Positions 47,473-52,947 of a DNA stretch of 64,000 bases are shown here, piece by piece. The DNA is from Demequina sp. NBRC 110054. Its GTDB lineage: Bacteria; Actinomycetota; Actinomycetes; Actinomycetales; Demequinaceae. A model generated the notes under the pieces. That model had not been told where the DNA came from. It was given only the letters and a program-made list of their open reading frames with translations, and did no database searches. A program made the position numbers and the translations under genes. Location of the stretch: positions 248,001 to 312,000 of the forward strand of contig NZ_BBRK01000004.1 of assembly GCF_002090115.1 (NCBI RefSeq), written 5' to 3'. How positions within the stretch are numbered: position 1 is the stretch's first letter; every line of letters begins with the position of its first letter.

Positions 47473-47841
47473 TTACTTCTTCTTTCCGGCGACGGTCTTC
47501 TTGCGGCCCTTGCGGGTACGCGCGTTGGTCTTGGTGCGCTGTCCGCGGACAGGCATGCCTCGACGGTGACGCAGACCCTGGTAGTTGCCGATCTCCACCT
47601 TGCGGCGGATGTCGGCCTGCACCTCGCGGCGCAGGTCGCCCTCGACGGTGAAGTTGGCCTCGATGTACTCACGGATCGCGACGAGGGTGGCCTCGTCGGC
47701 GTCCTTGACGCGAACGTCGCCGCTCACACCGGTGGCGGCGAGGATCTCGAGAGCGCGGGTGCGCCCGATTCCATAGATGTAGGTGAGTGCGATCTCCATG
47801 CGCTTCTCGCGCGGGAGGTCCACTCCGACAATGCGTGCCAT
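47473..47841 (-). CDS. rpsM: 30S ribosomal protein S13
   Basis: A 122-residue S13, starting [21 protein letters not shown] and ending in the basic [18 protein letters not shown] tail that contacts P-site tRNA. A 127-bp gap with a CCTCGGC/GCCGAGG hairpin (47908-47927) separates it from rpmJ. Confidence 0.97.
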
Positions 47842-47968
47842 GTAACTGCTACTCCATCAGTAGTCGGAGGTCTGACGCTCGGGCTTCCCGCGGTGGTCTT
47901 GTGCGGGCCTCGGCCTCCGAGCCGAGGGTTCCGGTCTCCCGGTGCCTGAACGAGGTATGACTTCTTGT

Positions 47969-48082
47969 CTAGCCCTGACGCTGCTTGTGGCGCAGGTTGT
48001 CGCAGATGACCATCACGCGGCCACCCCGTCGAATAACCTTGCACTTGTCGCAGATCGGCTTGACGCTGGGCTTAACCTTCAT
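47969..48082 (-). CDS. rpmJ: 50S ribosomal protein L36
   Basis: A 37-residue L36 ([19 protein letters not shown] start). The zinc-ribbon residues C11, C14, C27 and H32 are present, so this is the zinc-binding form. AAGGAAAGAACC lies before the ATG. infA is 46 bp upstream. Confidence 0.96.
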
Positions 48083-48128
48083 GGTTCTTTCCTTCGCCGA
48101 AGGCCCCCACCGGGACCGGCGGCGACGT

Positions 48129-48350
48129 TCACTTGTAGCGGTAGACGATCCGGCCGCGGGACAGGTCATACGGGCTCAGCTCCACCACCACACGGTCCTC
48201 GGGGAGGATTCGGATGTAGTGCTGGCGCATCTTGCCTGAGATGTGGGCGAGGACGAGGTGACCGTTCGTCAGTTCCACACGGAACGACGCGTTGGGCAAT
48301 GCCTCGACCACGGTGCCTTCGACCTCGATGACGCCGTCTTTCTTAGCCAT
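48129..48350 (-). CDS. infA: translation initiation factor IF-1
   Basis: A 73-residue OB-fold IF-1, starting [20 protein letters not shown], with [19 protein letters not shown] and the end [13 protein letters not shown]. It is normally directly downstream of map. Here four LRV genes intervene and infA has its own promoter with a leader of about 55 nt. Confidence 0.97.
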
Positions 48351-48411
48351 GGACTCCGCTAACTTTGGTGGACAGGATATGTTCGGGCGCACAGAAATGG
48401 CCCGACGGACG

Positions 48412-48440
48412 AGTATAGTCCCGCGACGGCCGGCGCACAA
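48412..48440 (-). promoter_or_regulatory. candidate promoter of infA-rpmJ-rpsM-rpsK
   Basis: On the minus strand TTGTGC (48440-48435) and TATACT (48417-48412) are 17 nt apart. The -35 lies inside a GCCGGC/GCCGGC hairpin (48430-48447) just past the last LRV gene, so one unit appears to stop and the next to start here. Confidence 0.6.
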
Positions 48441-48451
48441 GCCGGCGGATG

Positions 48452-49999
48452 CTACCGGAACTCGTTGCGCAGCCGCTGGACCGCCAGATCGGCGATTCGC
48501 GGGTCGCGGTGGTCCGCGAGGAAGCGGACGGTCGACGCGGGCACGCGCACGTTCCTGAGCAGCGCGGCGAGGACGTCGGTGGAGTGGTCACGGCTGAGGA
48601 AGATCACGACCGTGGCCGGAAGGTCGGGGCGTGCGGCGACGGCGGCCCTGACCGAGGCCTTGCGATGCGTCGCGAGAGCCATCAGCTCCTGCCCCGCGGT
48701 GGCCGGGTCCGCAGCCTTGGCGAGCTCGTCACCCTTCTCAGCGGTCTTCTCCGCGGTGGCCTGGCTCGTCGGTGTGGGCGCCGAGGCGGCCGACGCGATC
48801 GTGCGGGGGCGGATGATCTCGCCACCGTGCAGCAGGACCGGCTCGTCGAGCACGATCGCGCTGACGTCGATGGTCTCCGGGGCGGGGCGCGTGTCCACGG
48901 GAGCGTCGGGCTGCTGCGGAGCCGCGGCCTCAGCCTCGGCGACCTGCTGGTCCGTTGCGCCGCTCTCCCCCGAGGCGGCCGGCGCCTCCTCGGTGGGGCC
49001 CGGCTGCTGCGGCGCCGCCGGCGGGGTGGTCTTGGCGGTGACCGCCGCAAAGGCTTCGAATCCCTCGGCGAAGGCCGAGACACCGTGGTCAGCGGAGGCG
49101 CCGCCGAGGCGCGAAGCGCGGGCACGGCGCGAAGCAGGGCGAGCCGTGGGGGTGTCCTCGGGCGCGGCGGACGGAGCGCTGCTCTCGGCCCCCTCAGGAT
49201 CGGCGGATCCCGATGCAGCGGATTCGGGCGCGTGGGAGTCGCGCGGAGCCTCGCCTTCGTCCTGCGCCTCGAGCTGCGGCTCCACCTCCTCGACCGGCCC
49301 GGTCGGCGCCTGGACCGGCGCGGCGTCGACAGGCTTCTGGTCGGTGGGATCGATGGTCGCAACCGCGGGAGACGTCGTGGACTCTGCGGCCTGCTGAGCG
49401 ATGGCTCCCGTGGAGGGAACGTCATCGTGCGACGAACCGCTGTTGTCGAGGGAGGCGCTCGCCGCGTCGTCCGAGGAGCCGTCGTGGGGCGTGGCCGTGC
49501 TGGGGGCCGACGCCTTGTCGTGGGCGGGCTGCTCAGCGGGGACCTGCGTGGTCGCAACGGGCTCCGCGGAGGAGAGCGCCGTTGCGGAGGCGGCCTGCGG
49601 GGCAGCGGCGGGAGCATTCGGGCCCACGGCCGTGGAGCTGAGAGCTGACGGCGCATGACCGCTCGCGGGCGCCGGGGCGCTGAGTGCGGACGGTGCCGAG
49701 GCTCCACCGCGCATCGGCGAAGGAACGTCGAGCGCGGGGACGTCGATCACGGGCCGAGGCGCAGCAGGAACCTCCGGCGGCTCGGCGACCGAGACGTCCA
49801 TCGGGGTGTCGGCCGCCGCGATCGAGGACGCGGCCCTGGCCGAGACCTGGGGGAGCTCGCTCGTGGGAGCGGAGGCCGCCGACTTCCCCGCGCGCGCCTC
49901 GCGGACGGCAGCGACGTCCAGGAGCGCGACGCCCCGGTCCGAGCGCGTTGCCGCAGGCTGTCGCGAGAAGCCCCTGAACGGCTCTCTCAACTGCGTCAT
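48452..49999 (-). CDS. variant leucine-rich repeat protein with long disordered N-terminal region (LRV-A)
   Basis: A 515-residue protein of two parts. Residues 1-430 are of low complexity, rich in Ala, Pro, Ser, Glu and Thr, with no signal peptide or membrane segment, and are presumably disordered. Residues 435-515 hold three LRV/HEAT-like helical repeats of about 26 residues ([20 protein letters not shown], then RPDLP, then [20 protein letters not shown] and a last [15 protein letters not shown]). The end-of-repeat signature R-P-D-L-P is shared with the three paralogues upstream. ATG 49999 is used. An ATG 19 codons earlier is possible. It is the last of four LRV genes. A protein-protein interaction role is likely, but partner and function are unknown. 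Confidence 0.78.
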
Positions 50000-50168
50000 C
50001 TCACGCCCCCAAAGCAGGTCTCGCGGCCCACGGACAGGCCCGATGCGCCTCATCGTACTGACCCCCGGCCATTCGTGGCCAGGTTTGTGAAGAATGCGAC
50101 ATCCGACCCTCGATGCCGCTTCTGCCTGGTCACATGCGGTCACCGGCGCTGCGGCGTGCTCGGAGGGG

Positions 50169-50963
50169 TCAGCTCCGCGCCTGGAAGACGTATCCCCACT
50201 CGGGCTGTGCGGGAGAGCCTGGCGCAAGGGGCTGCGGCTGATACGCCTGCGAAGGCACCGCGCCTTGGCCCTGCGGGGGTAGCGGCGCGGCGACCTGCTG
50301 CGGGTGAGCCTCGGCGACGGGACCGGAGGACACGGGAGGGGACGGCCGGGAGGGGACCGCGGGACGCGGCGCATGGAAGCGCTGCTCACTGTGGGCATGG
50401 GAGGGGCTCGTCCTCGCCTCCGCGGGCCTCCATCTGTCACGCAGCTCGGGCGGCACGGCGGCATCCGCCGCGGCTCTCGCGGGGAACGCCACGACTGCCT
50501 CAGACCCGTCCTGGTCGCGAGACTCGCGCGCGTCAAGCGCCTTGCGCGCCAGTCGCTTGACCTCGGAGCGGCGGTGCCCCGCGAGCGTGCGCAACGTCGC
50601 CCCGTCGGTCGCGGCGTTGCGCGCGAGGGTCTTGAGGACCTCCTGATCGCGGTCCGTCGCGAGCTCCGCGGCGATGGCGCTCGCGATCCTCGGGCTCGCC
50701 GCAACAGCGCGCCGAACGCCGCGGTCGCCGTCGAAGGCCAGCGTCGCGAGCACTCCCATCGGACAGTCGGGCCTCAGCGCGATGGTCTCCCTGATCCGCG
50801 CGTCGCGATGGGACGCGAACTCCATGAGTCGCGATCGCGCGAGTTCTGCCGAGCCTGCCTCGAGCCAGTCCTGGCTCGGCCCTGAAGCACGGTCGTCGTG
50901 ATCGAGCGCGACGCCGGTGCTGACGACCAGCGCACGCGACCAGGCCCTCTCCTCCTGGGACAC
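50169..50963 (-). CDS. variant leucine-rich repeat protein (LRV-B)
   Basis: A 264-residue protein. Residues 43-145 hold four helical repeats: LMEFASHRDARIRETIAL ending RPDCP, then VLATLAFDGDRGVRRAVAAS, AAELATDRDQEVLKTLARN and LRTLAGHRRSEVKRLARKAL. Residues 150-264 are a Pro/Ala/Gln-rich, probably disordered tail, the reverse of the order in LRV-A. The GTG start has GGGAAGTGAG upstream. Function unknown. The conserved Cys in RPDCP is shared with LRV-C. The next LRV gene begins 169 bp downstream. Confidence 0.78.
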   Translation of the reverse strand: MSQEERAWSRALVVSTGVALDHDDRASGPSQDWLEAGSAELARSRLMEFASHRDARIRETIALRPDCPMGVLATLAFDGDRGVRRAVAASPRIASAIAAELATDRDQEVLKTLARNAATDGATLRTLAGHRRSEVKRLARKALDARESRDQDGSEAVVAFPARAAADAAVPPELRDRWRPAEARTSPSHAHSEQRFHAPRPAVPSRPSPPVSSGPVAEAHPQQVAAPLPPQGQGAVPSQAYQPQPLAPGSPAQPEWGYVFQARS

Positions 50964-51070
50964 GGTTGCTCACTTCCCCTCAGCGGTCCCGCCGGCAGAG
51001 ACGGGATCCTGCGAGGGACGCTAGTGAGCGGCGGTGAACTCGAGGTGACGAGAAGGTGAAGGATCGATGG

Positions 51071-51090
51071 GGTGTGACCTAGGTCACACC
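51071..51090. promoter_or_regulatory. perfect 20-bp palindrome at the LRV-C/LRV-B junction
   Basis: GGTGTGACCTAGGTCACACC is its own reverse complement. It overlaps the last codons of LRV-C and lies 108 bp before the LRV-B start. With no loop it is a better operator than terminator candidate. Confidence 0.55.
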
Positions 51091-51386
51091 GTCCCGAGGC
51101 GTCTGCGCGCCTCCGACCGGATGGCTCCGCGACGGGAATCGGCGAGCATCTGGAGCACGGTCTCGCTCGCCGACGCATTGTGGACGAGCGCCTCGAGAAC
51201 GCCACCGTCTTTGTCCTGGGCCAGCACGAGCATCGTGGCCATCGGGCAGTCCGCGCGTGACGCGACCGCGACCCGGACCGCATCGCTCTTGTGCATCGCG
51301 AGCGTCACCAGGTCCGCGGGGACGGTGCTCGGGTCCTGAGCGCGCGCGAGGTCCTCGCCCTTGGAACGGGCGAACGAGATTGCCAT
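51084..51386 (-). CDS. variant leucine-rich repeat protein, short (LRV-C)
   Basis: A 100-residue protein made almost wholly of three LRV repeats (residues 23-97): DLVTLAMHKSDAVRVAVAS ending RADCP, MLVLAQDKDGGVLEALVHN, and VLQMLADSRRGAIRSEARRRL. The first 20 residues are polar (MAISFARSKGEDLARAQDP). AAGAAGGACCC precedes the ATG. It is the smallest of the four paralogues and may represent the minimal repeat unit of the group. Function is unknown. Confidence 0.75.
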   Translation of the reverse strand: MAISFARSKGEDLARAQDPSTVPADLVTLAMHKSDAVRVAVASRADCPMATMLVLAQDKDGGVLEALVHNASASETVLQMLADSRRGAIRSEARRRLGTV

Positions 51387-51457
51387 GGGTGTCGGGTCCT
51401 TCTTCGAGGCGGCGTCCGGGTTCCGGGCGCCGGGGTGAGTATGTGGTCAGCCGCGCG

Positions 51458-51955
51458 TCAGGGCGACGGCTCGGGAACTGTCATCGACGGTACATCGCCT
51501 TGCGCGGCCGTCGGAACACTGGGTGACGGCGCGGCGGATCCTGAGAGGGCGGGGCCGCCGCCACGCGACTCCCCTGCGCGGATCGCGTCCTCGGCAGCGC
51601 TGCGCACGTCAGACCGTCGGTGCTGCGAGAGCCGCTCGAGCAGCGCCGCCGGCACGCGGGGGTTGCCGGCGAGCGCGATCAGCACTGCACGCTGCTTGTC
51701 GGCGGCGAGCTCCTCAAGGATCGCCTCCGACACGGACGCGTTGCCGGCAAGCGCGAGGCGCACATCGGTCACCGAGTCGTGCACGAGGGTCACGGCCACC
51801 CCGAGGGGAAGGTCAGCGCGCTCCGCGAGGCGCTCCCGCACCACGGGGTTGCGCGACGATGCGAACTCGACGATCTGCTCCCTGTCGAGATCCGCCTCCT
51901 GCACGCGCGTCGCGTCCGCACTCGATCCGGCTGCGTAGTTGAAACCCCTGGCCAT
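51458..51955 (-). CDS. variant leucine-rich repeat protein (LRV-D)
   Basis: A 165-residue protein with four repeats (about residues 25-128): IVEFASSRNPVVRERLAE ending RADLP, VTLVHDSVTDVRLALAGN, LEELAADKQRAVLIALAGN and LERLSQHRRSDVRSAAEDAI. A Pro/Ser-rich tail of about 35 residues follows. GGGAGGG lies 6 nt before the ATG. It is the first LRV gene after map and follows a candidate promoter at 52030-52058. The repeat length and leucine spacing fit the LRV class, whose founder is a nitrogen-fixation protein of Azotobacter, but the Fe-S cysteine cluster of that founder is absent. Confidence 0.8.
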   Translation of the reverse strand: MARGFNYAAGSSADATRVQEADLDREQIVEFASSRNPVVRERLAERADLPLGVAVTLVHDSVTDVRLALAGNASVSEAILEELAADKQRAVLIALAGNPRVPAALLERLSQHRRSDVRSAAEDAIRAGESRGGGPALSGSAAPSPSVPTAAQGDVPSMTVPEPSP

Positions 51956-52029
51956 CGGTGTCCCTCCCGAACGGGGCCGCACTCCGCCACAGGCCACCTC
52001 GCGCGGCGGGGTCCGGCACGTAGTGGACA

Positions 52030-52058
52030 ACCGTACGGCTGTGAGACGCCGACGACAA
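52030..52058 (-). promoter_or_regulatory. candidate promoter of the LRV cluster
   Basis: On the minus strand TTGTCG (52058-52053) and TACGGT (52035-52030) are 17 nt apart, 75 bp before LRV-D. An 8-bp hairpin (52132-52150) at the map stop precedes it, so the LRV genes look like a unit separate from map. Confidence 0.45.
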
Positions 52059-52137
52059 GAGGCTGCGCCACAGGCGTGCGAGCGCAGCGGCTCACAGTCA
52101 ATGGGCACGAGGGGTGAGGCGGGGAGCGAGAGGTCCG

Positions 52138-52947
52138 TCACGGACGGACCGGGATGATCCCGAAAGGCGCGAGGTCTGCCGCACCACCGTCGCTCGAGGT
52201 GAGCACCCAGATGCCATCCTCGTGGACCGCGATGGAGTGCTCCCAGTGCGCGGCGCGCGAGCCGTCGGCGGAGACGACCGTCCAGTCGTCCTCGAGCACG
52301 GCGCTGTCGGGCGTGCCGATCACGAACATCGGCTCGATCGCCACGCACATGCCGGGCTTGACCTTGGGATGGCGGCCACGCGTGCGGTAGTTGAGCACAT
52401 CGGGCGCCTGGTGCATGGCGGTGCCGATGCCATGGCCGACGTACCCCTCGATCGGGTGCACTCCGGCGTCGATGGCAACGTCCTCGATCGCGGCGGAGAC
52501 CTCATCCAGGCGCGTGGCGGTAGCGAGCGCGGCGATCCCCGCCCACAGCGCCTTGCGCGTCGCGGCGATCAGGGCCGCATCCTGGTCGGCCGCGGGCTTC
52601 CCCACCGAGAAGCTCAGCGCCGAATCGCCGTGCCAGCCATCGATGATCGCGCCGCAGTCGATCGAGACCAGATCGCCCTCCTCGAGCACCCGGTCCCCCG
52701 GGATGCCGTGGACCACCTCGTCGTTGACGGACACGCAGCTCGACGCGGGGAACCCGTAGTAGCCCAGGAAGTTCGACGTCGCACCGCCCGCCGCGATCGC
52801 GGCAGCGGCGGCGGCGTCGACGTCACGGGTGCGAGCACCCGGCACGGCCGCGGCCTTCGCCGCGGCAAGGGCCGACTCGACCACGAGACCCGCACGCGCC
52901 ATGACGCGCATCTGCTCGCGCGTCTTGTACTCGATCTTGTCGGCCAT
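52138..52947 (-). CDS. map: methionine aminopeptidase, type I
   Basis: A 269-residue MetAP removing the initiator methionine. The five metal ligands can be placed in SIDCGAIIDGWHGDSA (two Asp), GYVGHGIG (His), and IEPMF and HWEHS (Glu regions). The start MADKIEYKTREQMRVMARAG is typical of actinobacterial MetAP of the spc operon. It lies 24 bp after adk. Confidence 0.95.
   Translation of the reverse strand: MADKIEYKTREQMRVMARAGLVVESALAAAKAAAVPGARTRDVDAAAAAAIAAGGATSNFLGYYGFPASSCVSVNDEVVHGIPGDRVLEEGDLVSIDCGAIIDGWHGDSALSFSVGKPAADQDAALIAATRKALWAGIAALATATRLDEVSAAIEDVAIDAGVHPIEGYVGHGIGTAMHQAPDVLNYRTRGRHPKVKPGMCVAIEPMFVIGTPDSAVLEDDWTVVSADGSRAAHWEHSIAVHEDGIWVLTSSDGGAADLAPFGIIPVRP

What the first reader, a model, noticed from the sequence alone, without database searches (positions are those of the whole stretch)
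48452..51955. Four tandem variant-leucine-rich-repeat paralogues between map and infA
Four minus-strand genes share helical repeats of about 26 residues and an R-x-D-(L/C)-P signature ending the first repeat (RPDLP, RPDCP, RADCP, RADLP). Each closes with a basic last repeat ([32 protein letters not shown]). They interrupt the spc-alpha ribosomal array at a point where map and infA are normally adjacent. Repeat number (3 or 4) and the position of the disordered part (N-terminal in A, C-terminal in B and D, nearly none in C) vary, as expected of duplication followed by divergence. The location and four-fold expansion suggest a scaffold system produced with the translation apparatus. Function is unknown.
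Basis: partly seen in the sequence, partly recalled or inferred. Interest (0 to 1): 0.72.

Follow-up and report, generated by a model that had tools for sequence, protein, structure and literature searches.

The report
Demequina LRV-solenoid gene cluster beside infA
Next to the gene for a translation factor, bacteria of the genus Demequina carry a small family of related genes for coiled repeat proteins that look like molecular adaptors with switches of their own, so they are probably not part of the ribosome machinery although they sit among its genes.

Summary
Four minus-strand genes between map and infA (here A 51458-51955, X 51084-51386, B 50169-50963, C 48452-49999) encode 26-residue LRV repeats. 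The A and X models are alpha-solenoids with an exact 26-residue step; 1lrv is the only PDB sequence found by the C/X profile.

The cluster is a genus feature: one to six LRV genes lie upstream of infA in 44 of 44 genus genomes. The sister genus has C alone. None of 183 other genomes of the order has a C-type gene there. B, C and X are separate old groups; A is not resolved as one clade.

'Made with the translation apparatus' is not supported: infA has a promoter of its own, and the gap is a frequent insertion place. Upstream regions of A and C are enriched in Crp/GlxR-like sites; the only TGTGANNTANNTCACA of the 3.35-Mb assembly lies between X and B.

A short motif, P[VIF][RT]GF, ends A in 30 of 44 clusters, sits at the head of an extended C in 5 (window included) whose A lacks it, and is absent from 9, never twice. 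I read the set as Crp-tuned adaptor proteins; partner and process are unknown, and no bench data exist here.

The parts
52138..52947 (-). map (methionine aminopeptidase), upstream flank of the cluster
   Evidence: sequence; search of 198 genomes
51458..51955 (-). gene A: 165 aa, 4 LRV repeats, N-terminal MARGFNYA signature; lacks the RTAP[VI]RGF end that most orthologues have
51084..51386 (-). gene X: 100 aa, 3 LRV repeats, almost no disorder; old paralogue found in 9 of 44 genus genomes
51073..51088 (.). TGTGACCTAGGTCACA, perfect Crp/GlxR-type palindrome overlapping the end of X, 109 bp upstream of B; the only TGTGANNTANNTCACA in the 3.35-Mb assembly
51033..51060 (-). three TTCACC/GTCACC hexamers at 11-bp steps upstream of B (OmpR-family-like direct repeats; tentative)
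   Evidence: sequence; S. coelicolor PhoP motif as quoted in a passage of PMC4832192
50169..50963 (-). gene B: 264 aa, 4 LRV repeats, N-terminal WSRA signature, disordered tail with an APRP motif
   Evidence: not modelled
50086..50101 (-). TGTCGCATTCTTCACA, imperfect Crp-like site (8 of 10 half-site letters) upstream of C; similar element in most orthologues
48452..49999 (-). gene C: 515 aa, about 415 aa Ala/Pro/Ser-rich N-terminal extension plus a C-terminal 100-aa LRV domain orthologous to the short C genes of congeners
   Evidence: not modelled
49967..49981 (-). PFRGF at residues 7-11 of C; in 30 of 44 genus genomes a P[VI]RGF ends gene A instead
48412..48440 (-). infA promoter-like TTGTGC-N17-TATACT, kept in form in relatives
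48129..48350 (-). infA (initiation factor 1), downstream flank

Best explanation
A genus-specific set of small LRV-type alpha-solenoid adaptor proteins of Demequina, encoded by genes with upstream control elements of their own in the map-infA gap. Shown: the fold of A and X (predicted), conservation in place, separate B, C and X groups, the separate infA promoter pattern, enrichment of Crp-like sites upstream of A and C, and the place of the P[VIF][RT]GF motif. Inferred: the rigid solenoids bind partner proteins; the disordered tails carry docking peptides; A and C act in the same assembly, since the motif that A normally carries sits on C in the group whose A has lost it; transcription is tuned by the Crp/GlxR-type regulator, so the set answers to cAMP, carbon or growth state rather than to ribosome production. 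The partner and the process served are not known.
For: Fold: A model mean pLDDT 80.9 (blocks over residues 21-130 all above 90), X model 90.4, helix starts 25/51/77/103 and 23/49/75; 1lrv ranks first for X by VIA-align (Z 10.8, rmsd 3.0, 90 aligned, tied with designed alpha-Rep proteins) and is the only PDB hit of the C/X profile (E 4.7e-4). Conservation: at least one LRV gene upstream of infA in 44 of 44 genus genomes, A in 41, C in 39; 0 of 183 other genomes of the order have a C-type gene at infA at E<=1e-8. Crp: 8 or more of 10 half-site letters in 22 of 38 A and 28 of 36 C upstream regions against shuffle means 1.4 and 1.4, and 1 of 44 for infA against 1.2 (first set 17 of 29, 20 of 26 and 0 of 29); one match to the Crp-type HTH PF13545 in the genome, a full-length match to Crp/Fnr structures; TGTGAN6TCACA 219 sites vs 10 for the reversed control in 44 genus genomes. 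Motif: 35 hits in the sense frames of the 44 stretches, 30 at A's end and 5 at C's head, none elsewhere; the 5 are exactly the 5 genomes with layout A-X-B-C.
Against: No partner, expression data or biochemistry. Nine of 44 clusters have no such motif; in six of these (G127, G205, G225, G212, G208, G204) an A gene is there without it and C does not make up for it, so the motif is not needed in every species and the hand-over is a single event in one group. The pattern was widened after seeing both ends. Crp: B regions score 4 of 30, a number that shuffles also reached (max 4); C sites match mostly TGT plus TCACA; in the 16 genomes whose perfect sites were all listed only 3 have one upstream of infA; X upstream regions 0 of 5. 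The window's A promoter differs from the common one. The simple promoter scan found none in 48000-52300.
Confidence: 0.4

Rival explanations
1. Translation-linked scaffold: the LRV proteins are made with, and bind, the ribosome or its assembly factors, which is why they sit in the spc-alpha array.
For: Position next to infA kept in 44 of 44 genus genomes.
Against: infA has its own promoter pattern; A and C have upstream elements that infA lacks; the gap is a frequent insertion place; other LRV-type matches lie elsewhere in the genome.
Confidence: 0.12
2. Tolerated residence: short repeat genes that multiplied in an insertion-prone gap, kept by weak selection, each with little or unrelated function.
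For: The gap is insertion-prone; gene number runs from one to six and single types are lost in some species; tails diverge fast.
Against: Every genus genome keeps at least one; the C domain is 93 % identical to that of D. salsinemoris while its extension is 53 %; end motifs and upstream elements are kept.
Confidence: 0.22
3. The proteins are independent adaptors for different partners that share only a fold and a place; the likeness of A's tail end and C's head is coincidence.
For: Different conserved ends: MARGF...RGF in A, WSRA...APRP in B, none in short C; six species have A without the motif and C does not carry it.
Against: The pattern is rare: 4 further hits in about 850,000 codons of six-frame reading of the loci checked, so a chance origin within a 415-residue extension is about 0.002 (post hoc); it is kept in all five extended C genes seen.
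Confidence: 0.26

Closest known systems
Leucine-rich repeat variant (LRV) proteins, PF01816 / PDB 1lrv
   Same: about 26-residue units, helix-pair solenoid, profile match over cut-off for A and B, 1lrv first for X
   Different: short (3-4 repeats), tandem paralogues with disordered tails; the iron-sulphur part of the Azotobacter LRV protein is recalled and was not looked for
LRV_2, PF25591
   Same: 12 of 14 A orthologues match at E<=0.001
   Different: the window proteins stay under its cut-off (best 21.7 vs 27 bits)
HEAT / designed alpha-Rep repeat proteins
   Same: general solenoid arrangement (VIA Z up to 13.1 for A)
   Different: only weak HEAT profile hits (1 of 14 A rows, 3 of 14 B rows); middling Z is common for helical repeats
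DUF2336 (PF10098)
   Same: weak matches over about 50 residues in A and X
   Different: under the cut-off, 50 of 262 profile positions

Membership tests
LRV repeat proteins (PF01816) | profile score over the curated cut-off (21.6 bits) | tested here: met
   A and B 31.1 bits each; not met by X (15.1) or C (no hit) of the window
LRV repeat proteins (PF01816) | solenoid of about 26-residue helix-pair units like 1lrv | tested here: met
   A and X models, exact 26-residue steps; 1lrv Z 10.8 rmsd 3.0 for X, Z 10.9 but rmsd 7.9 and rank 23 for A, Foldseek rank 2 for A with E 0.054. B and C not modelled
LRV_2 (PF25591) | profile score over 27 bits | tested here: not met
   best 21.7 bits among the four window proteins
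HEAT repeat (PF02985) | profile score over 23.5 bits | tested here: not met
   12.6 bits in A, no hit in the other three
DUF2336 (PF10098) | profile score over 34.6 bits | tested here: not met
   best 24.7 bits
Ribosome-associated factor | physical association with ribosomes | not testable with these tools
   only the genomic position speaks for it
Crp/GlxR regulon | operator TGTGANNTANNTCACA in the control region (consensus as quoted in a passage of PMC4254451) | tested here: met
   one perfect site at 51073-51088
Crp/GlxR regulon | binding of the regulator and a change of expression | not testable with these tools
   no bench data
Known anti-phage systems (PADLOC) | profile match | tested here: not met
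   no match at E<=0.1 for the four

The most novel reading that the evidence does not exclude
A dedicated bacterial LRV scaffold complex in which several tandem solenoid subunits assemble and present a docking peptide (P-x-R-G-F) on a disordered arm; in one species group the peptide has been handed from subunit A to subunit C, and the set is a main target of the genus's Crp/GlxR regulator.
Probability: 0.17. Interest if true: 0.6.

Novelty: new variant of a known kind. Interest (0 to 1): 0.4.

Why it matters
LRV solenoids are a known fold with little known function in bacteria (general knowledge). A genus-wide set with its own control elements, a likely regulator and a short motif that changed carrier gives concrete handles (which residues, which regulator, which pair) to find what such adaptors bind. 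It also warns that a place in a ribosomal array need not mean a ribosomal job.

Tried and rejected
SpbR (NF052659) was a weak NCBIfam hit (19 bits vs cut-off 400); in the papers listing the name stands for a Streptomyces regulator, and the lead was dropped. 'leucine-rich repeat variant' as a phrase listed papers on other matters, NOD2 and bowel disease above all. No RNA family reached its threshold in 47800-52400. The consensus promoter/terminator scan found nothing in 48000-52300; the infA promoter was seen by comparing relatives. No anti-phage match. Foldseek on the A model gave no hit at E<=0.001. The order-wide searches drew 198 genomes from a larger group. Papers: I saw search listings (searches listed none) and passages found by term in PMC4254451 and PMC4832192; none was read whole. 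That no paper treats these genes rests on 'Demequina + leucine-rich repeat' (0 papers) and 'LRV + HEAT repeat + actinobacteria' (0 papers) in that library only.

The reading 'exactly one motif per cluster' came from the first 29 clusters and did not survive: that scan had used the motif itself as one of two search patterns, and 12 of its 28 loci carry only that pattern. I then fetched the stretch upstream of infA for all 44 genus genomes (with 17 and the window); 9 have no motif. Confidence was lowered for that (0.45 to 0.40; novel case 0.25 to 0.17).

The tree used 141 columns for 94 rows; 26 forks are open, the X clade also holds one long-branch outside row, and A is one group in only 15 % of bootstrap trees. 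Rows left out: and regexes missed some genes (22 of 23 B and 26 of 28 C; 38 of 41 A, 36 of 39 C and 30 B). Genomes with map and infA on different contigs were left out.
Full report
What is there. Four minus-strand genes lie between map (52138-52947) and infA (48129-48350). From map: A (51458-51955, 165 aa), X (51084-51386, 100 aa), B (50169-50963, 264 aa), C (48452-49999, 515 aa). All four are coding, including C's 415-residue Ala/Pro/Ser-rich extension (53 % identical over 332 aligned residues; the LRV domain of C 93 % over 101).

Fold. Pfam LRV passes its cut-off in A and B (31.1 bits each, cut-off 21.6); X reaches 15.1 bits and C has no hit. At E<=0.001 LRV and LRV_2 are matched by 7 and 12 of 14 A rows, 10 and 7 of 14 B rows, 10 and 1 of 14 C/X rows. 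AlphaFold models from 14-row alignments give A mean pLDDT 80.9, with residues 21-130 above 90, and X 90.4. Helix pairs start at 25, 51, 77, 103 in A and 23, 49, 75 in X, an exact 26-residue step. 1lrv, a solved LRV protein, is the only PDB sequence that the C/X profile finds (E 4.7e-4) and the better of two weak hits of the A profile (E 0.21). By VIA-align it ranks first for X (Z 10.8, rmsd 3.0, 90 aligned; designed alpha-Rep proteins are tied) and 23rd for A (Z 10.9, rmsd 7.9); Foldseek puts it second for A with E 0.054. B and C were not modelled.

Whose genome. The window lies in a 3.35-Mb assembly (G000) without a name. Its genus mates include contigs of the same length as named records, for example G009:C6 (2,471,443 bases) and Demequina aestuarii NZ_BBRD01000001.1, so I take the genus to be Demequina. 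The G genomes and the named loci overlap and are not independent.

Distribution. In 198 genomes of the order all have infA and a map-like gene. C-type genes (profile A4, E<=1e-8) lie at infA in 12 of 14 genus genomes and in the one genome of the sister genus (G155); six genomes of two other families have weaker matches on other contigs than infA; 177 have none. A scan of one genome for each of 84,980 species with the A profile gave 28 loci, all titled Demequina or Demequinaceae but one Actinobacteria bin; in 27 both map and infA were found and the LRV genes lie between, in the 28th the contig ends. That scan used the patterns MARGFNYA and [TV]RTAP[VI]RGF and misses clusters with neither. I therefore took the stretch upstream of infA from all 44 genus genomes on hand. 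Types were assigned by the best of four profiles. map was in the stretch in 41 of 44.

Evolution. A maximum-likelihood tree of 94 LRV segments puts B in one clade (100/100) and C, sister genus included, in another (99/92); the six X genes of the first set form a third (95/93) that also holds one long-branch outside row. A is one group in only 15 % of bootstrap trees, and B may have come from within it. X is an old paralogue, not a fresh copy of C. The window's C and B group with those of L052, L058 and L059 (100/98, 100/89); its A groups with L058 and L052 (99/92), while that of L059 is not placed.

Neighbourhood. Of 108 genomes outside the genus with both genes listed on one contig (listings cut off), the map-infA gap is under 700 bp in 62, 1-15 kb in 45 and larger in one. 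In G137 it holds genes that read by eye like a sugar ABC transporter. Upstream of infA, TTG(A/T)-type -35, 16-18 bp and a TAT(A/T)(G/C)T-type -10 were found in 29 of 29 regions of the first set and 41 of 44 of the genus set; the other three have TTGAG followed by TAAACT or TAGTGT at the same place. In the window it is TTGTGC (48440-48435) and TATACT (48417-48412). The pattern was drawn from these sequences; the stricter general scan found no promoter. So the LRV genes need not be made with infA; whether they are is not known.

Control. TGTGACCTAGGTCACA at 51073-51088 is the only TGTGAN6TCACA in the window (mean 0.03 in shuffles) and the only TGTGANNTANNTCACA in the assembly, the GlxR consensus as quoted in PMC4254451. 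TGTGAN6TCACA has 6 sites in the assembly, reversed control 0, and 219 vs 10 over 44 genus genomes. The assembly has one match to the Crp-type HTH PF13545 at E<=1e-6; other Crp families were not searched. That protein matches Crp/Fnr structures over its whole length (E 6.9e-68 for 3h3u, 6.9e-67 for 3r6s; that these are mycobacterial Crp and corynebacterial GlxR is recalled). In 160 bp upstream, 8 or more of the 10 half-site letters are matched in 22 of 38 A, 28 of 36 C, 4 of 30 B and 1 of 44 infA regions; shuffle means are 1.38, 1.43, 0.84, 1.21 and maxima 4, 6, 4, 4. The first set gave 17 of 29, 20 of 26, 4 of 22 and 0 of 29, and 0 of 5 for X. So A and C are enriched, B as a class is not, though two B regions (window, G211) have perfect sites. 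Related sequences are not independent; infA is the matched control. In the 16 genomes whose perfect sites were all listed, 3 of 81 lie upstream of infA: window (before B), G201 (before A), G205 (before a second A-like gene). An 11-bp direct repeat of the GTTCAC-N5-GTTAC kind is upstream of A in 12 of 29 (shuffle mean 0.3, max 3), and the window has TTCACC units at 11-bp steps before B, like the S. coelicolor PhoP motif quoted in PMC4832192; both are tentative.

The motif. In the sense frames of the 44 stretches P[VIF][RT]GF occurs 35 times: 30 at the end of A, 5 near the start of an extended C, nowhere else, never twice in one cluster. The five are exactly the five A-X-B-C genomes, whose A lacks it. 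Nine clusters have none: six with an A gene that ends otherwise (G127 as PTGTSGF; G205, G225, G212, G208, G204), one C only, one B-C and one B at a contig end. Elsewhere I found 4 more in about 850,000 codons of six-frame reading, so a chance origin in a 415-residue extension is about 0.002; but the pattern was set after seeing both ends and this is one event. I take it as a lead that A and C work together, no more. B tails carry an APRP-like motif.

How it most likely works. Rigid solenoids bind partners along their surface; disordered arms carry short motifs that dock them; at least A and C act together; transcription is tuned by cAMP-Crp. The predicted fold, the conservation, the infA promoter pattern and the site and motif counts are shown; the rest is inference.

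Noticed in passing
L029:4602-5039 (G000:C4 about 1592.6-1593.0 kb); L033:7326-7766; L034:6283-6723; L032:6867-7316: Another small LRV gene (145-149 aa) lies next to genes that read by eye like exonuclease VII subunits, in the genus and in the sister genus.
   Followed up: partly
L030:4671-5408 (G000:C4 about 935.7-936.4 kb): A 245-aa LRV protein with two Pfam LRV matches over cut-off lies beside a gene that reads by eye like a C5 DNA methyltransferase.
   Followed up: no
L066:1501-1516: One of the six TGTGAN6TCACA sites of the assembly lies upstream of a gene that reads by eye like a flagellar sigma factor, next to flagellin-like genes.
   Followed up: no
L035:10183-12911 (G155, sister genus): secY-like gene, then C and infA; no map was found in that stretch and the only map-like match in that genome is weak (E 1.9e-39).
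   Followed up: no
L042:4958-5790 (D. litorisediminis): Genes A and B are each split between frames; sequencing error or broken genes.
   Followed up: no
L071 (G205), whole stretch: A cluster with six LRV genes (A-A-X-B-B-C) and a perfect Crp-like site before the second A-like gene, without the RGF motif.
   Followed up: partly
G000:C4:1064898-1065068: A strong LRV_2 match (74.4 bits) elsewhere in the genome.
   Followed up: no
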